From Pomphorhynchus laevis (lineage: Eukaryota > Acanthocephala > Palaeacanthocephala > Echinorhynchida > Pomphorhynchidae), in assembly GCA_012934845.2 (NCBI GenBank), contig WNNJ02000144.1:30094-94093 (forward strand): a stretch of DNA of 64,000 nucleotides, read 5' to 3'. Made by a program: the position numbers and the translations under genes. Of the stretch, positions 13,511 through 57,110 are shown piece after piece. The notes below the pieces were generated by a model, which was given only the letters and a program-made list of their open reading frames with translations, did not search any database and was not told where the DNA came from. How positions within the stretch are numbered: position 1 is the first letter of the stretch; each line of letters opens with the position of its first letter.

Positions 13511-14277
13511 AAATTTTATGCTTAAAAAGTTATATCGGAAAACGTTTATTTTAAGCGCAGACTCTCTGCTTAAAACTTTAAATAACTTTAAAAATTAAAT
13601 TTAGTAATTTAGGAGAAATGTTTTATTAATTTAATCATTTTTACTTAATATTACAATAATTGATAGACTACTTACTTCAGCTTAAATTATAATTTTTTCA
13701 TAAGTCAAATCACACTTTTCGATTATTTTGTTTGCACTTTAACTAGCTAAGTTATGTAGCACGCAATAGTATAATTGCCATATTTTATCAAAAGAATTTT
13801 AATACCATGTCATCTTTACATTTGCAATCAACATATTATCTTGATTAGTCGAATAGAAAATTCAACAAATTCTGAAAAATTAAAGTGCGTGTCGATCAAA
13901 ACGCTAGATTATTGATATATCGTTGTGAAAATGAATTTTAAACAGACCTATTTGATTAATATAGAAAACGAGGATAAATTGTTACAGAATTATCAAGAAT
14001 CTATTTAGAAAAGATAGAATAATGATTAAGATAATTACTAATTTTGAAATAACAAACTTATTAAATTATTAATATTATTTAACTTTGTTGGATGAGCTGT
14101 TTGATTTTAGATAGCTTTGATATACAATTTAGGTTAAAACAGGTTTTAGTATGTTTGTTTCAATACATAAAAACACTCAGATTGGAAAATGAGTCTGATC
14201 AACTTTCATACTCTAGTATTACATCTGGCAGTATTACAATATTTAATATAAAATAATATGAATAACCACGAAAGAAT
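13511..14277. other. AT-rich stretch, no gene seen
   Basis: No open frame or repeat is supported between the PLE remnant and the 300-bp array. Confidence 0.6.
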
Positions 14278-14999
14278 GATGTGGCAGCCACGAAAGAATC
14301 GACAAAACGATACCAGGTACAGTTTCGTCATTATTTTGACTCATCAGTGCCAGATACATCCAAATACTGGATGCAGAAAAGGACCGACATACGGCACGAG
14401 TATGTCAAAAGGTACTTAGAGCTAGAAAATTTCTAGTAAACTAGGTACATGCTTCACCAAAAAGTCATTAGCGAAGAGCACTGCCTAATGCAAGCACATT
14501 CTCTCTAATTATCTGTCAACTTATTTGTATTTTACGAGAAAATAAGAGATTCCCGTTGGCATATTTTCTGTTTGTATGATGTGGCAGCCACGAAAGAATC
14601 GACAAAACGATACCAGGTACCGTTTCGTCATTATTTTAACTCATCAGTGCCAGATACCTCCAACTACTGGATGTAGAGAAGGACCAGCAGACAGCACGAG
14701 TATGTTAAAAGGTACTTAGAGCTAGAAAATCTCTAGCAAACTAGGTACATGCTTCACCAAAAGGATCATTAACGAAGAGCACTGGCTAATGCCAGCGCAT
14801 TCTCTCTATTTATCTGTCAACTTATTTGTATTTTACGAGAAAATGAGAGATTTCCGTGTGCATTTTTTCTGTTTGTATGATGTGGCAGCCACGAAAGAAT
14901 AGACAAAACGATACCAGGTACCGTATTGTCATTATTTTGACTCATCAGTGCCAGATACATCCTGCAACTAGATGAAGAGAAGGACCGGCAGACGGCACG
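14278..14999 (-). repeat. 300-bp tandem repeat with hammerhead ribozyme-like core
   Basis: There are about 2.4 units: 14278-14577 (300 bp), 14578-14878 (301 bp) and 14879-14999 (partial). Each begins GATGTGGCAGCCACGAAAG. On the minus strand, copies 1 and 2 contain CTGATGA (14341-14347 and 14641-14647), then GTCA or GTTA paired with TGAC around an AAATAA loop, then GAAA (14323-14326 and 14623-14626). A stem III follows (ACGGTA/TATCGT in copy 2), with GUU at the expected cleavage site. Upstream GGCA can pair with TGTC as a weak stem I with a bulge. Copy 3 has GAAA changed to AATA. This is the layout of a self-cleaving satellite or retrozyme; activity is not shown. Confidence 0.75.
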
Positions 15000-15354
15000 G
15001 TAAGTTGACTCAGATTGAGTCAAACCATCATCAGTCAAATCTATGTTTATTGAAGCGCTCATAGGGTCTTTTTGCTGATCAAACATGCAATTTGCTTATG
15101 TGTACAGATCCGTGCATCCTTGATTTATCAATATTTCGTGTAGTCGGAACCGAGGATGCGCTGTCAACTTTTTTGTAAAGTGAGGCACAGCAAAAACCAC
15201 ATAAACATTTCGAGCATTAATTGATGTAGACTAGGTTTCAGATAAGTTATAACATTGACATAATATATATTTGTTTAAAAAATCGCAAATATTAAAATAC
15301 TATTGCACTACCCGAGAAATACTTGCTTCAGTAGTTTGTATTGGTTGACGATTA

Positions 15355-22210: not shown

Positions 22211-22308
22211 TTCCAGATGTCAGTTCCAGATTTCAGTTCCAGATTTCAGTTCCAGATTTCAGTTCCAGATTTCAGTTCCAGATTTCAGTTCCAGATTTCA
22301 GTTCCAGA
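22211..22308 (+). repeat. 13-bp tandem array, 7.5 units
   Basis: Unit TTCCAGATTTCAG, with one variant (ATGTCAG) at the first unit. The same unit forms the array at 27361-27510 in the 5' leader of element B1, and the approach sequence ATACATTCCAG is shared. This is therefore probably the 5' leader of a truncated B-type element. A 62-codon frame through it (VPDFSSRFQFQIS) is a translation of the repeat and not a gene. Confidence 0.85.
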
Positions 22309-27360: not shown

Positions 27361-27510
27361 TTCCAGATTTCAGTTCCAGATTTCAGTTCCAGATTTCAGT
27401 TCCAGATTTCAGTTCCAGATTTCAGTTCCAGATTTCAGTTCCAGATTTCAGTTCCAGATTTCAGTTCCAGATTTCAGTTCCAGATTTCAGTTCCAGATTT
27501 CAGTTCCAGA
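27361..27510 (+). repeat. 13-bp tandem array, 11.5 units, in the B1 leader
   Basis: Unit TTCCAGATTTCAG repeated without visible variation until it ends in TTCCAGAAAATC. It is followed at 27555-27630 by a looser array of CGACAACC-type units. Both lie between the element start and ORF1. They may act as an internal promoter or repeat-based 5' UTR, as repeat monomers do in some LINEs; this is inference. Confidence 0.9.
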
Positions 27511-31865: not shown

Positions 31866-34221
31866 GGCTCAAGAAAAACGCATTTGCTATGGTATGGTAA
31901 CATAACGGATCTATGCCTATCAGAGCTCGACGAGTATGTCCTATTAAGCGTTTTGTGATGCAACACACATAGTCTGAATGCTTTCGAGTGGATAAGTCAG
32001 CACAAACCCAAACTCCCAAATCTTTATATGAGTTGGTTCTTTCGATACTAATTGAACCAAACTGGTACTCACCTCCAAGATGATCACATGATCTTCGTGA
32101 TATACGCATACATGTACATTTAGCGGAATTGATCCTCAAGTGATTTATAGACCAATTAAATATAACGTCGACGTCGCTTTGTAAATGCTGTTTGTCAAGA
32201 TCGGAAATAATAGGTCGCCAAACTTTAAGATCATCTGCATATAATAAACTTAATGAACTGATATTTGGTATCAAATCGTTGATATAAAGACTGAATAAGA
32301 TGGGACCCAATACACTTCCCTGTGGAACACCTAACAACACTGGAAATGGACTCGACAGCGACTCATTTACTCGTACGACACTTTGTCGGTTGGAAAGGAA
32401 TACACGAATCCAGTTTATGATCCTCTTATCAAGATGAATGTGCTCCAACTTCTCAATAAGACGCGTGTGATTAACTGAGTCGAACGCTTTTGAGAAATCA
32501 AAGAAAATGACATCAACTGGTATGCCTTGATCATAATAGTGATACCAATTTTCACGTGCATGTACAAGATTAGTAGTCGTGGAATAACCTTTTCGGAAGC
32601 CATGCTGTGCTGGGTTCAAAATTTGAAATCTATTTAGAAATTCTATTATTCGTCGCTTAATCAATCTTTCTAGCACACGACAACACACGCAAGTGAGACT
32701 AATAGGCCTATAATTGTCAATGAACGAACTATCCCCTTTCTTATAAATAGGACAGATGATGGAATTCTGCCAATCAGAAGGAACAACGCCAAAAGCAACA
32801 GACGCAGAGAAAATATTGTAAAGCGGATGACATATTATGTCAGCGATGTTGCGCAGATATACTGGCGGTAAGCCATCTGGACCCGCACCTGCTTTGCATT
32901 TAAGTTTCCGAAGCTCTTGGAGAACATCATCACATCGGAAGAAGTCGCTGGTGTCATCTCCGGGCGATTCAAATGTACACGGATCACCCATTGTCACATC
33001 CTTATGGTCAAGATTCAAAGAATGGAAATGATTTCTAAACATATTTGATATCTGCAAAGAATCAGTTATGAATTTCCCATCGTCACGTTGAATACAATTT
33101 ATAGGTTTACAGCGCGTATGCTTAGCAGTCACATACCTAAAGAAAGAGCGGGGATCACGGTGACAGTTTATACTTAGCTGTTTTTCGAAAGATCGCCTAC
33201 CAGTTCGCTTCATGGACGTAACGAGGTTTCGCCATTTCTTATAAGTGCTGAAATTAGCTCTGTCTTTACGATAGTTATTAAAGGCCTTACGTCTCATCTT
33301 TAAAGCATGTTTTATGTCGCTATTAAACCAAGGCGGTAAGATCGATGTCAAACAGTGTTTACTCTGAAGAGGTGAGAAACGATTAAGGAGGTGGTACAGA
33401 GTATCCCTGAAAAACTGCCATGAATATTCGACGCCAACATCATAAGCATCCAACCACTTTACCCCAACGAGATATTTATTTACTAGAGCAAAGTCAGTTC
33501 TGAATGGGTTTACATACGACCTCGGATTTACGCCATGTGAGTAGACATCGCTAAGACCAATCGAAATGACCACATGATCTGAATGACATATTGGGTCCAG
33601 ATAGCTTAATCTATCAAGAATGTCATATGGTACAGTAAGGCATAAATCCAAAAGTGAATGTGAATCCTGTGAAAATCTTGTACTCTGACTGACATGTTGC
33701 TTAAGAGCCAAGCTGTTTATTAAGCCAAGTAGCTTCAAACTCTCGACATCCGAGTCATTGGAAGTGTAATTAACCCAATTGACAGATGGCATGTTGAAAT
33801 CACCGAGTACAACAAATCTATCACAATAACTACTTCTCTCCATTAAAGCAGCTATGCTATCTGTGTTTGATCTTGGAGAACGATACACAGTCAATACCGT
33901 TATTGGGTGTTGACAATATAGCCTAATACACAATGCTTCATTATGGTTAATAGCATCACTAAGAGTTTCAATTACTCGGAATTGAAGCCTATTAGAGATA
34001 TACGCGATAACACCTCCTCCAATCTTCCCTGTTCTATCACTTCTACTTATGCTGTATCCCTCAATGAATATATCTACGTCTGCTATTGACGAGCTAAGCC
34101 AAGATTCTGTGAAAATACCTACATCTGGTACGATATCTTGAAAGAGACATTTTATTTCATCTAACTTATTAAGTAGACTACGAATATTCGAGTAAATGAT
34201 TTTTAAACCACCATTATTTGT
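31866..34221 (-). pseudogene. N1 ORF2, endonuclease and RT core
   Basis: One uninterrupted minus-strand frame from the A3 junction at 34221 to the B1 junction. It gives GGLKIIYSNIRSLLNKLDE, FTESWLSSSIADV, GGGVIAYIS, VLGDFNMPSVNW and CHSDHVVISI (endonuclease). WFNSDIK and NYRPISLTCVCCRVLERLIK follow, then FDFSKAFDSVNHT, GVPQGSVLGPILF and LLYADDLKVWRP (RT). All catalytic residues are present. The frame is cut in AFFLSH, where B1 inserted, and its start lies at 38965, beyond A3. Length and motif order fit a CR1/L2-group ORF2. Despite being the host of several insertions, the coding sequence itself is well preserved. Confidence 0.85.
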
Positions 34222-34239
34222 AAAAAAAAAGATTTATGA

Positions 34240-37071
34240 CGTCGAGAGGGAGTTGATTCCAGGCGAGTGAGGCGGCGACGAGGAAGGATCGGAGACCGTA
34301 GTTGTTGGAGTAATTAGGAACGTGGAGTAAGAGGGTATGACAGGAACGAAGCGATAGCGAGGTGGGGCGAGTATCGTCTAAGAAAGGAAGGTTGATGAAC
34401 GATGGGGAGCCGACAGCGATGAGACGAAAAGTAATGAGAAGAAGGCGGAGTTTGATGCGGATGTGGATGGTGGGCCAGGAGAGTTGGGCAAAATATGTGG
34501 ATGTGTGGTCGAAGCGACGGAGGCGAAAGAGCACTCGAACGGCGGTGTTGATTATTCGTTGTAGGGGTAGGATGATGGATTTTGGAGAATTGGCGAAAAG
34601 GCTAAGGCAGTAATCGATTTTAGGGAAAAGAAGCGATGAAAGAAGAGACATACAAGAACGGAAGTCGATAAGGGGGCGGATACGGCGGATGTCACGAAGA
34701 ATTAAGTTAGACGAGCGGACCTTGTCACGGACGAAGGGTTTAAGGGAAAGGTGATCATCGAAATGGAAGTCTAAGGAAGTGAGATTGTGGACTACAGGGA
34801 TGATCGATGAGGCAAAAGATACAATGGGAGGAGATATGCTTGGTTTACGGGGAAGGATCCACATTATTTTGGACTTTTCGGCGTTTAGAACGAGATGGAG
34901 ATTGGAGAGACGCTTGTAGATAGAAGAGAGACAGTTGGAGGCAGAAATGGCGATATCGTGTATGCGATGTGCGGGTGCATGAGCATAGATTAGAATGTCA
35001 TCGGCGTATTGCATGACGTTAAAGGAGTAAGGTTTGATAAATGGAGAGAGATCGCCAAGCAAAAGAGAGAAAAGCAGGGGACCTAGGACTGAACCTTGTG
35101 GAACCCCGCAAAAAATAGGGATGGGAGGGGAGGATGATGAATTAGAACAGACGCGAAAGGAACGGTCGGATAGATATGAGGCGAACCAAGCTACGGAGGA
35201 GGAAGAAAAGCCGTAATCATAACGAAGGCGAGAAAGGAGGACGGAGTGGTCGACAATGTCGAATGCGGAGGAGAGGTCCAGGGAGATGAGAACACTATAT
35301 AGAGCCTTGTCTCGAGAAATGAGTAAGTCGTTGTACACTTTTATGCATGCGATTTCTGTCGAGTGATTAGAGCGGAAAGCGGATTGGAAAGGAGGGTACA
35401 GATTGGATGAGGAGAGATAAGCGTTGATTTGTATTAAGATGAGGCGTTCTAAGAGCTTAGAAAGAGTAGGGAGTAGTGAAATGGGGCGATAGCTAGAAGG
35501 AAGGGAGGGGTCGAGCGATTGTTTCTTAAGGAGGGGACGAACGATTGCGGATTTCCAGTGTGAAGGGAAGATACGACTGCGGATGGACGAGTTAAACAAG
35601 GTTGTGAGAAATGGGGATATCGATGAGCATATAGATTTTAATATGTGGGTAGGCAGGGGATCGGCAGGTGAGGTTTTGTTGGGCAAGGACATGAGGACAG
35701 ATGATACTTCTGTAGGTGATACAGGGAGAAGATGAAAGAGTTCGGGAAGGATGAGAGTAGACTGGGCAGAGTGGAATAGGATGGAGACCGGGGTGTGAGA
35801 GAGCAGCGTGGATACTTTAGTCTGGAGAAATGACGAATAATCATTAGCATTGATGTTGCAAGGCGTAGAGGAACGAGCCAGGATTGAGTTAAAAGTATGC
35901 CAGAGAGTCTTAGAGTTGAATGAAGTGATTATTTTATGCTGCCAGAAGGAGTTGCATTTGGTACGTAGTAGTTTGAGATGAGACCGGCGAAGAGCATGAT
36001 AGGAATCACGGAAAGACGGAGTGATCGAGCGGAAATCGCGTCTGAGAGAGCGGTGATAGACTCGAAAAGCATGACGGAGTCGACGCTTTGAGAGTAGGCA
36101 TTGAATGTCAAACCATGGGGCACGGTGCAAGCGACGGTGTGGGTGAGACTTGAAGGGCAAGAGAATATCGAGAGTGGATGTGAGTTCAGAGTCGAAAAGA
36201 AAGGCGAGATCGTGAGGAGATGAATATGTTATTGTGGGTAATGATAGAGACGATTTGAGTAAGGCAGAGCGGAGAAGGGAAAGGTCAAGATTTCTACAAG
36301 GGCGACGTAGGATTGTAGGTGTGTAAGGAGGGGTGTGGTTGCGAGCGAGATCAAGGGTGATAAGAAAGTGATCGGATAGACCAGGATCAGAGATGGACAG
36401 TGAGGTGTGGGCAGCAAAATGATCGGGGACAGCGATGATGTCGAGTGCCCCGCCAAGTATATGTGTGGGGCAGTGGAGATTAGTTTGTAATTGTAGTTGG
36501 ATAGAATGTTGATGAACCGGATGGAATCTGTGGAAGAGGGGCGGTCTAGGCGGATATTGAAGTCGCCTAGAACGAGTGAAGGGATTGAGGACAAAGAACA
36601 ATGAGAAAGGAGGTCAGCGAGTTCGGTAAAAAATAAGGCTGTAGGAGCTGATGAACCAGGACGGTATACAATGGCGAGATCTAGAGTGATCGGGTTAGAA
36701 TAACGACAAGTGAGCAATTCAAAAGAGCAAGGACTGAAAGGGGGATTGATTTTGCGAAGAGACGCTGGGTGACGCGCGAATGCGACGATGCCGCCATGAT
36801 TAGAGGATTTAGAAGGGCATGAGCTGAGGGGGCGGGCGGATTCGACTAGGGAGCAACCGGCAGAGAGCAGACGGCGAATGGAGAGGTCGTCGGAATCTGA
36901 GTGCCAGGATTCGGTGAGGCAGAAGAGATCGATGGATTGCTTGGTGAATAGATTGAGGATAAGATCGGATTTATTGAGAATAGATCTAGTGTTGAGGAGA
37001 CCGAGGCGGAAACCGTGTGCTGTGGCGAAAGAGACTAGTGGAGAAGACACATAGGAGAGATGGAGCGCCAT
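34240..37071 (-). pseudogene. A3 ORF2 protein (endonuclease-reverse transcriptase), one frameshift
   Basis: From 37071: LGLLNTRSILNKSDL, CLTESWHSDSDD, GGIVAFARHPAS and VLGDFNIRLDRPS (endonuclease). At 36467-36470 a C-run is one base shorter than in A1, which moves the frame. The second frame (36601-34214) continues THILGGALDIIAV, LSDHFLITLDL, then RT: SYRPISLLPTLSKLLERLI, LDLSSAFDIVDHS, GVPQGSVLGPLLF and MQYADDILIY. It ends in AWNQLPLDV and then runs into the deletion junction. All catalytic residues are present. One base and the missing C-terminal codons separate it from an intact protein. Confidence 0.85.
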
Positions 37072-53468: not shown

Positions 53469-55380
53469 TTATGTTCTAATATTCTAATATTCTAATGTTA
53501 TGTTCTAATGTTCAAAGTATCCTCCCACAAATGGTAGAGGTTTCGCTACTTGCTGAAGAAAGTAATGCTAGTATCCTGGCATTCAGTGAATCTTGGTTGA
53601 ATTCTAACATTGATGACCCAGAAATTGCAATTCCCGGTTACAGCTCATACCGTTGTGATCGTGTTAATGGCAGAGGTGGCGGTGTAGTCATATACGCGCG
53701 AGATAGTATTACTACTAGTGTCCTATATCACGATAATGAGGAGATTAATTACCAATTCATATGGTGTCGTTCCGAAAGCCCTGATTCCTCTGTTGTCATT
53801 GGTTTTGTGTCCATAAGTCCTATGGCATCCACCAACGCCTCCGGAAAGATTTAGAACGGTTCGCATCTTACGAAAACTTAATCTTACTTGGGGACTTTAA
53901 TATGCCACGTATAGACTGGTCTACTTATTCCCGTTTGAGCGGCTGTGATTGGGAATCTTCTGAACTATTCGATTTATTAAACGAGCTGAATTACTTTCAG
54001 TACGTAAATCAAGACATTCGTTTCAGAGGCTCTTCTAGAAGTCTATTAGATTTATGTTTGTCTAACCATGATCTACCGATAAATATTGACTACATACAAG
54101 CTATAGGGAATAGTGACTATTGCAGTATGTTAATTCGCTTTCCGTTCGTTCTGCCTTTCATAAACACTTGTCACATCGAGCTTAAGGTTTTCAAAGACGA
54201 TTATAGCGCTATCGGTAAGCACCTTGATCGCGTTGCTTGGCTTGACCCATTTGTGGTCGGATTGGAATATGCATGGAGGTTTTTTCGAGATACTCTTGAT
54301 TCTCTTTAGACAGATATGCGCCTTTACGTGCTTCACGCTTCCGTAAATGCAATAATCCGTGGTTTGACGTAGAATTAGGAAATCTTCTTAAGGAGTGTAA
54401 GATCCTTTATCGTCGATATCGTCAATCTAAAGGATTATATCAATTATATTGAAACGCAAGAAATAGATTTACGGCACTTACAAGATCTAATAAACTCTAC
54501 TTTGAGAAATCACTCGTTCATTATATCATGAGATAAGTTTATTTTTCAAATATTGTGCATCCAAAAATCAATCGAGATGCAAATGTTTCCTGTTACGTGT
54601 GAAAAATAAAGTAGTTATCGACGATTATATGGTCGCTAATACATTTGTAGAGACATTATTTCCTAGAATAGATGAATCAGTTACTGTACACGGCACCCTT
54701 CATCAGAATAATAAATCATCTAACTTGACGTCACATATTTCTATCGCTCATGTATATGAGCAACTTCGACGATTAAAACGGTGTCATTCTGCTGGTCCTG
54801 ACAGATTGCCATCCATCCTACTTAGAGAATTAGCTTCCCGCATTTGCGGTCCAAAACATTGAATATTCATATTTTCCTTATGCAAATCAAAGATTTTACC
54901 TCGACTGGCTAAAATCGATAGTTTGCCCCGTATATAAATAAGGTGATAGGTCATGCGCCAGCAATTTTAGACCAGCTAGTCTGACATGTATATGCTGTAA
55001 GATACTAGAGCGTTTGATTTTGTTACACATCAACCGCCATATTTCGATAAATAACCTTTTACATCCTGCCCAACATGGATTCCGTTCGAGTAGATCAACA
55101 TGTTCAAATCTTCTAATTGCTAGAGATGATTGGTCCAGTGCTTTTGATGCAGGTGTCGACACCGACGTGGTATTCGTGGACTTCTCGCGTGCTTTCGATA
55201 CAATCAATCATAATATACTTATTGGCAAACTTATAGGACTTCACTTTGATTCTATAATTGTTAATTGGATTCATGCGTATTTATTAGATAGAACTGCAGC
55301 AGTCAGAGTAAGTGGGACTTTGTCAGATTGGACTTCTATATGTAGTGGTGTACCACAAGGATCGATTTTAGGACCAATTT

Positions 55381-55383
<3 letters not shown>

Positions 55384-55429
<46 letters not shown>
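55384..55429. repeat. (TA)n tract left of the SINE dimer
   Basis: About 22 TA units interrupting the RT frame of element Y after GPIL. A matching, longer tract lies right of the dimer at 56033-56106. Confidence 0.9.
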
Positions 55430-55430
<1 letters not shown>

Positions 55431-55433
<3 letters not shown>

Positions 55434-56028
55434 CGTATGAGATCATGAAGATCGATTGAAATCGGGACTGGTGATCCTTTGATGGATTCTTATTTATGTA
55501 ATGAATAGTTGCTAGGTCACACGAGGTGACTTTCGCATTGAAAACCAGCTACAGAATCCTTCCTTCATGATATCCAATTCCATACACCCTGACTACTAAC
55601 GGCCACATTGTCACAGCCGTTTTCGTTTCGCCCGCTTTTTGCCACATGTTGGTAGCCCCGGGCTCATCAGAAGGCTGACTACCAACTCTTCGCCTTTTGA
55701 AATTTGACTTATCCGAGATTCGAGCTGTCGCTCTCCGTACTTGGCTTGCGCTCTTGACTGCTAGGCTACGAATCCAGGATTACCAGATTTCACACAGTAT
55801 ATGAAACCTTCCATCATGATATTCAGAAACTGCATTGTCCGAGATGCTTCTCTGGCATGCTTATTATAGATTTTATCGTATGAGATCATGAAGATCGATT
55901 GAAATCGGGACTGGTGATCCTTTGATGGATTCTTATTTATGTAATGAATAGTTGCTAGGTCACACGAGGTGACTTTCGCATTGAAAACCAGCTACAGAAT
56001 CCTTCCTTCATGATATCCAATTCCATAC

Positions 56029-56033
<5 letters not shown>
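55431..56033 (-). mobile_element. tRNA-headed SINE/retrozyme dimer with hammerhead ribozyme
   Basis: Period 443 bp: 55431-55590 and 55874-56033 are identical by eye over 160 bp, giving 1.36 units. On the minus strand one monomer contains A-box TAGCCTAGCAG (55768-55758) and B-box GCTCGAATCTC (55725-55715) at tRNA spacing (43 nt). A type I hammerhead follows: stem I GCCTT/AGGGT; CTGATGA (55670-55664); stem II GCCCG/CGGGC (55663-55659 with 55634-55630); GAAA (55629-55626); stem III with AACGGC/GCCGTT; and GTC (55593-55591). Predicted cleavage lies between 55591 and 55590. The minus-strand 5' end of the insertion (56033, AGGGTG) is exactly a post-cleavage end. Schistosome Sm-alpha repeats have the same combination. 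No protein is encoded. Confidence 0.85.
55586..55675 (-). ncRNA. Hammerhead ribozyme, type I, GUC site
   Basis: All core elements are in canonical order on the minus strand with three helices. Stem I is GCCTT with AGGGT (two wobble pairs). Stem II is five perfect Watson-Crick pairs closed by G-C next to GAAA. Stem III is A-C with G-U next to the core, an internal loop, then AACGGC with GCCGTT. The cleavage triplet GTC directly precedes AGGGT. Functionally it would cut a tandem transcript into 443-nt units. Activity in cis is predicted, not shown. Confidence 0.8.

Positions 56034-56106
<73 letters not shown>
56033..56106. repeat. (TA)n tract right of the SINE dimer
   Basis: About 37 TA units directly joined to the dimer end ACACCCT. 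After it the RT frame of element Y resumes (NELPSLL). The two tracts suggest either insertion into a TA repeat or TA growth at both ends. Confidence 0.9.
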
Positions 56107-56107
<1 letters not shown>

Positions 56108-57110
56108 CGAACTCCCATCATTACTGCTGTCAAAAACGTTGTTGTACGCCGATGATCTTAAGGTCTATCGCTGTGTTGTTAATGACCTTGACCGACAAAT
56201 GTTACAGTCTGATCTCGATACATTGACGTATTGGTCTGCTGAGAACTGTTTAAGTATTAATGTGACAAAATGTGCATACATGCACATAGGGAATAAGTTT
56301 TCGACAACCAGCTACTCAATTAACTTACAACCAATTCCTATGGTTCGTCAATATAGAGACATGGGCGTCGTCGTTTCGGATGATCTAGGCACTAGGAAAA
56401 ATACGGAGCAAATATGTGCTAGAGCAACTCGAATTTCCGGTATGATTTCCAGATGTTTTAGTAAATTAGAAATTGAGTCATTTAAACTTTTATTCACTAC
56501 CCTCAGTTCAAGTGTTCTGAACTATTGTTCTCCAGCATCGTACCCAGTTAACAAATCGGAAGAACTTCGTATTGAACAGGTATTTCGACGTTCTTCTAAA
56601 CGGGTAGCGGGTCTTCATAACCTTACTTATAAGGAACGGTCAAGTCGCCTTAGTATGCCCTCATTATCTTCACTTCGAGCATTAAATGACATGGTTGTAG
56701 TGTGGCGGGCGATGAGCAATCCCGAGAATCCCGTTAGAAGTCTATTTCGTCCGCGAAATGACTCAAGATTACGTGGTCATCCACTTATGTTACAACGTAA
56801 ACACTGGTGTAAAAAATAAGCATTAATTTTGCCGTGCGTCATTTCAGCTTGGAACAGTTCACCGGCGGAAGTGGTGAAGCAAACAAGCAGACGTGGATTT
56901 GTATCTACTTTGAAGAAACTGACTAATTTTTAATTACTTTGTTGTTAGTTTCCTTTTTATATTTTAAATTGTGAAGGTGTCTATTGAGCTACGCTCGCTG
57001 ACATCGCTTACATCACTTTTACATCACTTTTTACATCGCTTTCATGCTAACCAAGCTTTCATTGTTTTTGTGTGATCGCTTACGGCGTTTAAATATGAAA
57101 CGCATGCCTC

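What the first reader, a model, noticed from the sequence alone, without database searches (positions are those of the whole stretch)
55431..56033. SINE/retrozyme dimer with pol III boxes and a complete hammerhead, inserted exactly at the ribozyme cleavage end
Seen: a 443-bp period, two identical 160-bp parts, A and B boxes 43 nt apart on the minus strand, and a full type I hammerhead (CTGATGA, GCCCG/CGGGC, GAAA, GTC). The minus-strand 5' end of the whole insertion (56033) begins AGGGTG, the same bases that follow the GTC site at 55590. The inserted RNA therefore looks like a self-cleaved, more-than-unit-length product. Known: schistosome Sm-alpha repeats combine pol III boxes with a hammerhead; metazoan retrozymes circulate as small circular RNAs. 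Inference: this is a mobile self-cleaving SINE family that moves as a cleaved or circular RNA.
Basis: partly seen in the sequence, partly recalled or inferred. Interest (0 to 1): 0.9.

Follow-up and report, generated by a model that had tools for sequence, protein, structure and literature searches.

The report
Self-cutting retrozyme with Penelope-type ends
A short element with a self-cutting RNA motif is present in many copies in this animal genome, and where its copies begin and end points to the enzyme of Penelope-type jumping genes as its likely carrier, which can be tested.

Summary
The sequence observation holds: a 443-bp unit, two identical 160-bp parts, a type I hammerhead (one descriptor hit in the window, none in 60 simulated windows) and a 5' end exactly at the cleavage site. 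Rfam does not recognise the hammerhead, and the pol III boxes are near chance. The element is a metazoan non-LTR retrozyme with 957 exact unit starts in its 249-Mb genome. In 37 loci (chosen as best hits, a bias), 21 of 52 array 5' ends lie at position 1 +-1 and 44 of 53 array 3' ends fall in two narrow sites about 90 and 160 nt after the cut. Fifteen loci hold head-to-head copies with 3' ends outward; in the 6 pairs with both ends clear, one arm has the short and the other the long end. GIY-YIG Penelope-like elements (PLEs) of the same genome show the same two-ended rule (7 of 7 classifiable pairs), and one PLE family shares 14 of its terminal 17 nt with the retrozyme's short site. This supports, by anatomy, the published but unproven idea that PLEs mobilise retrozymes. 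Self-cleavage, circular RNA, the enzyme and the host species are not shown.

The parts
55591..56033 (-). full 443-nt retrozyme unit (unit position 1 = 56033, 443 = 55591)
   Evidence: 443 spacing; 158 matches in own genome, a lower bound; consensus of 116 units
55431..55590 (-). second, partial unit (positions 1-160), ending at the long RT-start site
   Evidence: identical to the first 160 nt of unit 1; 29 of 53 array 3' ends are of this class
55574..55687 (-). type I hammerhead ribozyme; predicted cleavage between 55591 and 55590
   Evidence: single descriptor hit, 0 in 60 simulated windows; core conserved over 116 units except N7, which varies
55664..55670 (-). catalytic core CTGATGA
55626..55629 (-). 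catalytic core GAAA
55591..55593 (-). cleavage triplet GTC (116 of 116 units)
55679..55685 (-). UUGGUAG on the 5' side of stem I, complementary over 7 nt to loop II (possible loop-loop contact)
   Evidence: not tested by covariation
55649..55655 (-). CUACCAA in loop II, partner of the above
55938..55954 (-). short RT-start motif (unit positions 80-96) in the full unit; not used as an end in this copy
   Evidence: 14 of 17 nt identical to the terminal 17 nt of PLE family B; short ends of other arrays lie at 86-92 once TA is set aside
55384..55430 (-). (TA)n at the 3' end of the insertion
   Evidence: TRF; 42 of 44 short/long 3' ends are followed by a TA run of 8 or more
56034..56106 (-). (TA)n before the 5' end of the insertion
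   Evidence: TRF; only a short TA run in four uninterrupted LINE copies
55757..55768 (-). A-box-like sequence (11 of 12); significance doubtful
55716..55726 (-). B-box-like sequence (8 of 11); significance doubtful
55200..55383 (+). left flank: part of a LINE-like ORF interrupted by the insertion
   Evidence: LINE copies run through the site without the insert; reverse transcriptase nature read from the text, no family search of this piece
56107..56819 (+). right flank: continuation of the same LINE-like ORF
   Evidence: ORF; 40 genomic matches, the window's own included; no Pfam hit for 56190-56819

Best explanation
It is a non-autonomous metazoan retrozyme whose RNA is inserted by Penelope-like (PLE) machinery. 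Inferred cycle: an array is transcribed; the hammerhead cuts after GTC, so RNAs begin at unit position 1, and multimers or circles also exist. A PLE protein binds the region just downstream of the cut, nicks AT-rich DNA (here a short TA run inside a LINE) and starts reverse transcription inside the RNA at one of two sites, about 90 or about 160 nt after the cut. Synthesis runs through one or more units and often stops at the cut end. When both DNA strands prime, the two cDNAs meet and give a head-to-head array, one arm from the short and one from the long site. Shown here: positions of ends, head-to-head structure, one-short-one-long pairs, matching PLE anatomy in the same genome, the empty site. 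Inferred: self-cleavage, the PLE protein as the enzyme, and a circular or multimeric template.
For: 5' ends: 21 of 52 array pieces >=90 nt start at unit position 443/1/2, binomial P 4e-32 against uniform (pieces of one locus are not independent). Genome-wide, 957 exact unit starts, 770 of them preceded by GTAGTC, leaving 187 that begin at position 1 after other sequence (an upper bound, since a mutated GTAGTC counts too). A k-mer method without BLAST, on the same loci, also piles 5' breaks at position 1 and 3' breaks at 155-169 and 86-92. 3' ends: 15 short + 29 long of 53; 135 exact short ends with (TA)n genome-wide, and 0 at one other TA-like site of the unit, so TA homology alone does not set the end. 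Head-to-head pairs L012, L019, L025, L029, L035, L043 each have one short and one long end, chance 0.008. PLE family A (GIY-YIG): two 3' ends about 42 nt apart, and 7 of 7 head-to-head pairs with both ends classifiable are one long, one short, chance 0.004; two of these pairs are flanked by direct duplications of 12 and 13 bp. PLE family B: the terminal 17 nt match the retrozyme best at positions 80-96 (14 of 17; next best 10), P 5.5e-4 anywhere in the unit. Published PLE biochemistry: RT starts internally at two adjacent sites, AT-rich DNA is cut, both strands are extended, and the start lies 85-92 nt after the hammerhead cut (my arithmetic from +26 and +111-118; PMC11167929). Hammerhead core nearly invariant in 116 units except N7, C in 33 of 116.
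Against: No RNA or biochemical data. Rfam does not call the hammerhead, and the unconstrained minimum-energy fold is not the hammerhead (-33.5 against -24.2 kcal/mol constrained; z-score -0.24 for the window copy). 31 of 52 5' ends are not at the cut and 9 of 53 3' ends are at neither site. The PLE pieces that I read are broken or partial, and no intact PLE ORF was found, so a source of enzyme is not shown; I did not search for one beyond. The likeness to PLE B is weaker in a gapped whole-tail test (P 0.04 anywhere, 0.002 near the start site) and was tested after I had noticed it. PLE A's short end fits the same place by only 11 of 17 (next best 10) and its best gapped alignment lies elsewhere. 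The long ends of PLE A and B do not resemble the retrozyme's long site above background. Hairpins before the start sites are no better than shuffles. The second, 296-bp family shows no significant tail match (P 0.64). The 36 fetched loci were best hits to the window's own 603-nt piece, which favours pieces that begin at position 1 and end near 160.
Confidence: 0.74

Rival explanations
1. An ordinary pol III SINE with an incidental hammerhead, mobilised by a LINE by target-primed reverse transcription with a (TA)n tail.
For: A/B-box-like sequences at tRNA-like spacing; 3' ends with (TA)n; window rich in LINE-like ORFs.
Against: Boxes near chance (11 pairs in the window, 2.55 expected) and TTTT at position 47-50. 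A LINE-SINE would be expected to have one 3' end, not two, and L1-type twin priming (recalled) would leave a random outer end on the inverted arm, whereas in 6 of 6 clear pairs both outer ends fall on the two sites (in six further pairs one outer end is elsewhere). No LINE sharing the tail was seen, but no search for one was made.
Confidence: 0.1
2. A satellite spread by DNA recombination or extrachromosomal circular DNA; the hammerhead is a relic.
For: Long tandem arrays (19 BLAST segments in L037); units within an array more alike than between arrays (median 4 against 11 differences; 23 of 204 against 83 of 6466 pairs identical), which homogenisation could also give.
Against: Array ends concentrate at the ribozyme cut and at two fixed sites; insertion into a LINE with known empty sites; core conserved with only N7 free.
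Confidence: 0.06
3. Template is a cleaved linear monomer; tandem arrays arise by end-to-end template jumping of a (PLE) reverse transcriptase.
For: Explains 5' ends at position 1 and unit junctions exactly at 443|1.
Against: Of 153 internal junctions that passed the filter, none has an insertion or deletion within 5 nt, six have base changes there, whereas jumping usually leaves extra nucleotides (recalled). Near-identity of units in many arrays, and of the two arms in L019, L025 and L032, fits one circular or multimeric template better; but arms of L015 and L029 differ by 11-26 positions and units of L022, L029(+), L034 and L037 differ by 15-34 on average.
Confidence: 0.2

Closest known systems
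Metazoan non-LTR retrozymes (Cervera and de la Pena 2020, PMC7229834; outline, results parts 1-2 of 3 and discussion read)
   Same: 150-450 bp tandem repeats with type I hammerhead, GC below 50% (44% here), dispersed, more than one family in a genome, PLEs in the same genome.
   Different: There PLE mobilisation was proposed from shared features and co-occurrence; here ends, inverted arrays and a start-site motif support it. Expression and circularity not shown here. Loop II of 24 nt and imperfect stem III.
Penelope-like elements: Poseidon of Anolis (Frangieh et al. 2024, PMC11167929; parts 1-2 of 4 read) and Penelope of Adineta (Arkhipova et al. 2013, PMC3846280; passages read)
   Different: The retrozyme has no ORF of its own. 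Its two sites are about 70 nt apart instead of 30-40 nt. Its insertions often begin at the hammerhead cut, while the Anolis study found hammerhead cleavage unnecessary in vitro and no reads beginning or ending at the cut.
Schistosome W-elements (PMC8490949, passages read) and Sm-alpha (recalled)
   Same: Repeats of which some carry type I hammerheads, partly dispersed.
   Different: No sequence comparison was made; pol III boxes here are not significant.
Second retrozyme family of the same genome (about 296 bp, L045-L052)
   Same: Tandem; head-to-head in 3 of the 7 places read; ends in TA-rich sequence, mostly about 105-120 nt after the cut.
   Different: Its hammerhead passes Rfam RF00163 (best 42.2 bits, cut-off 34); no significant tail likeness to PLE B.

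Membership tests
metazoan non-LTR retrozyme | type I hammerhead with CUGANGA, GAAA, NUH and three stems | tested here: met
   single descriptor hit, core conserved in 116 units; against: no Rfam gathering hit and imperfect stem III
metazoan non-LTR retrozyme | short (150-450 bp) tandem repeats, GC below 50% | tested here: met
   443 bp, GC 44%
metazoan non-LTR retrozyme | many dispersed copies | tested here: met
   957 exact unit starts on many contigs
metazoan non-LTR retrozyme | target site duplications longer than 4 bp, when present | tested here: inconclusive
   window insertion in a TA run with (TA)n on both sides, so a duplication cannot be delimited; not tested systematically at other loci
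metazoan non-LTR retrozyme | no LTR, primer binding site or polypurine tract | not tested
   -
metazoan non-LTR retrozyme | self-cleavage and circular RNA | not testable with these tools
   needs RNA
PLE-type insertion (works like) | internal RT start at two sites (with and without tail) | tested here: met
   44 of 53 3' ends in two sites
PLE-type insertion (works like) | head-to-head copies, tail on one of the two | tested here: met
   6 of 6 clear pairs; two ambiguous ones agree; six more have one end at neither site
PLE-type insertion (works like) | AT-rich target | tested here: met
   window: empty sites in four LINE copies; TA run after 42 of 44 short/long 3' ends
Penelope-like element (is a) | ORF with RT and GIY-YIG endonuclease | tested here: not met
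   no ORF of 150 aa or more lies within 55431-56033 (the ORF 56010-56819 only starts there)
pol III SINE | functional A and B boxes | tested here: inconclusive
   present but near chance, TTTT at 47-50
tRNA-derived SINE | tRNA-related head | tested here: not met
   ARAGORN none in window; no tRNA family among Rfam matches

The most novel reading that the evidence does not exclude
The retrozyme is to Penelope-like elements what SINEs are to LINEs, and one retrozyme RNA, probably a circle or multimer, serves both nicked DNA strands at once: one subunit of the PLE enzyme starts at the short site and its partner at the long site, so every two-sided insertion is one-short-one-long, and the hammerhead cut sets where the cDNA stops.
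Probability: 0.35. Interest if true: 0.85.

Novelty: new member of a known kind. Interest (0 to 1): 0.62.

Why it matters
How retrozymes move is open: PLEs are named as likely helpers because both carry type I hammerheads, occur in tandem and co-occur (PMC7229834; PMC7761336, passages). A family with fixed, countable ends beside PLEs with the same two-ended signature turns this into a testable pairing, and suggests that the two PLE start sites belong to the two DNA strands. Searches of the open library listed no title or abstract start on PLE-type tails in retrozymes; of the 11 papers of one search that hold both words I opened two, in parts, so this is not a proof of absence, and subscription papers are not covered.

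Tried and rejected
Pol III/SINE reading: boxes near chance. End-to-end template jumping: no indels within 5 nt at 153 junctions. TA homology alone choosing the 3' end: 0 genome-wide matches at one other TA-like site of the unit. BLAST of the unit against 13 GIY-YIG loci (L068 overlaps L064) gave nothing significant, best E 1.1; the likeness shows only when ends are compared. Loci L054, L057, L059 had no hammerhead motif that I could recognise. Species: COX1 fragments reach at most 70% identity among the 120 listed database proteins and the LINE ORF matched mostly unnamed metagenome proteins. A genome-wide count of long ends was asked ten times and never answered.

Full report
What is there. 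On the minus strand, 56033-55591 is one 443-nt unit and 55590-55431 repeats its first 160 nt without a difference. The unit carries one type I hammerhead. A strict descriptor finds it once in the window over both strands and never in 60 simulated windows. Rfam does not call it; on the isolated segment the only hammerhead listed is Hammerhead_3 at 15.1 bits, cut-off 48.5. Likely reasons, read from the sequence: a 24-nt loop II, and a stem III that runs C-G, G.A, A-U, A.G and a bulged A before AACGG/CCGUU. The free minimum-energy fold differs from the hammerhead. Against that, in 116 units from the selected loci C3, U4, G5, A6, G8, A9, GAAA and GUC are each unchanged in 112-116 of 116, while N7, which tolerates change (recalled), is T in 83 and C in 33. 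A 7-nt complementarity UUGGUAG/CUACCAA joins the 5' side of stem I with loop II; it may be a loop-loop contact but was not tested by covariation.

The host site. The insertion splits a LINE-like ORF. Four other copies of that LINE, L084-L087, run through the site with only a short TA run, e.g. L084 TTTAATATATATATTAACG. So the two long TA runs, 55384-55430 and 56034-56106, came with or after the insertion.

The family. The unit start AGGGTGTATGGAATTGGATATCATG occurs exactly 957 times in the 249-Mb genome; 770 are preceded by GTAGTC. BLAST pieces were chained into arrays. Counting pieces of 90 nt or more not cut by contig ends: 5' ends 21 of 52 at position 443/1/2; 3' ends 15 short (86-101 as aligned, 86-92 once TA is set aside), 29 long (156-170 as aligned), 9 elsewhere (3, 53, 54, 68, 142, 150, 193, 323, 338). 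TA runs of 8 or more follow 42 of 44 short or long ends but precede only 9 of 52 5' ends. A k-mer count on the same loci gives the same peaks, with a weaker 5' peak at 186-192. Genome-wide the exact short end plus (TA)n occurs 135 times; the same kind of pattern at one other TA-like site of the unit gives 0.

Head-to-head arrays. Loci with 5' sides facing and 3' ends outward: L009, L012, L015, L017, L019, L025, L028, L029, L032, L035, L036, L038, L041, L043, and L040, where one arm is cut by the contig end: 15 of 37 loci; the second arm is only 41-48 nt in L009 and L038. Six have both ends clearly classifiable and all six are one short, one long (L012, L019, L025, L029, L035, L043). L028 (one end at a contig end) and L036 (short end in rearranged sequence) agree. 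In six others one end is short (L009) or long (L015, L017, L032, L038, L041) and the other is at neither site. No pair has two like ends. Chance of six discordant pairs at the observed frequencies is 0.008.

Penelope-like elements. The genome has 75 listed GIY-YIG matches. Sorting of twelve loci by mutual BLAST gave three groups, here A (L056, L058, L061, L064), B (L060, L062, L063) and C (L054, L057, L059). Pfam confirms GIY-YIG for the two family A pieces given to it; the RT-like piece L068:2926-3276 had no Pfam or PDB sequence hit, so calling these PLEs rests on GIY-YIG, the hammerhead-like motifs after the endonuclease, the tail structure, and RT motifs recalled. Family A ends either at ...GTAATAACTATA or about 42 nt further; 14 of the 41 main hits stop at the short end. 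Head-to-head pairs with both ends classifiable: L056, L070, L072, L078, L082, C1114, C337, all seven one long and one short, chance 0.004. L080 and C2846 lean the same way but are not clear, L077 and L079 cannot be classified. C337 and C1114 carry direct duplications of 12 and 13 bp outside the two ends, so the inverted structure is one insertion event. Family B ends at ...CAACTAATGATTACATT or up to 13 nt earlier, or about 25 nt further: by eye 7 short and 7 long of 14 readable copies, L063 not alignable. Its terminal 17 nt match the retrozyme best at positions 80-96 (14 of 17; second best 10), the retrozyme's short start site; P 5.5e-4 for any place in 20,000 simulated units. A gapped comparison of whole tails finds the same place but is weaker, P 0.04 anywhere and 0.002 nearby. 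The 17 nt were taken because they are terminal, but after I had noticed the likeness. Family A's short end fits there by 11 of 17 (next best 10), its best gapped alignment is elsewhere, and the long ends of A and B show no clear counterpart.

Reading. In the Anolis PLE, RT starts inside the RNA at two adjacent sites, mostly 111-118 nt into the ORF with the hammerhead cut at 26, after cutting AT-rich DNA, and both strands are extended (PMC11167929). [quoted passage not shown] The retrozyme shows each of these in its genomic copies. The 5' ends at the cut suggest that cleaved RNA is used in vivo, which the Anolis study did not see.

Template. Of 153 internal unit junctions none has an indel within 5 nt. 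Units in one array are more alike than units of different arrays (median 4 against 11 differences). Arms of L019, L025 and L032 differ by 0-5, 1 and 1 positions, but those of L012 by 5-7, L015 by 11-19 and L029 by 14-26. In L010 several neighbouring units alternate (adjacent 2, lag-two 0 differences). This fits several laps on one circular or dimeric RNA, or later homogenisation; I cannot separate these. An RT starting at 160 on a linear monomer would give only 160 nt, so arrays need a circle, a multimer or template jumping.

Pol III. The A/B pair is not distinctive in this window and a T4 lies at position 47-50, so pol III transcription of the full template is unproven.

Second family. A retrozyme of about 296 bp with an Rfam-grade hammerhead (68 matches, 62 above the cut-off, from 73 scored candidates) is tandem, and head-to-head in 3 of the 7 places read (L045, L048/L049, L051), with 3' ends mostly 105-120 nt after the cut and others at 88, 128 and 166. 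Its tail likeness to family B is not significant.

Verdict. A new family of a known kind, the metazoan retrozyme, with anatomical evidence for PLE-type insertion. Self-cleavage, circles and the enzyme remain to be shown.

Noticed in passing
window 14276-15006: A 301-bp tandem repeat, 2.4 copies, 90% matches, not examined.
   Followed up: no
window 22211-22308 and 27361-27510: Two arrays of the same 13-bp unit TTCCAGATTTCAG, 5 kb apart.
   Followed up: no
L045-L052: Second retrozyme family of about 296 bp with RF00163-grade hammerheads, tandem and in part head-to-head.
   Followed up: partly
L101/L102 and L100/L103: Inverted PLE family A copies flanked by 12-13 bp direct duplications (TAAGATTGACCA; GAAAATATTTCAT).
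   Followed up: yes
L065-L067: COX1-like fragments with TGA and other stops, some on long contigs, perhaps nuclear copies of mitochondrial DNA.
   Followed up: partly
L010: Retrozyme array in which several neighbouring units alternate between two variants, as a dimeric template or higher-order amplification would give.
   Followed up: partly
unit positions 15-37 and 209-231 (window 56019-55997 and 55825-55803): A 23-nt direct repeat inside the unit (87% identical), suggesting that the unit arose partly by duplication.
   Followed up: no
window 4440-56819: Many LINE-like reverse transcriptase ORFs, several long; only 34214-36601 was confirmed by Pfam.
   Followed up: no
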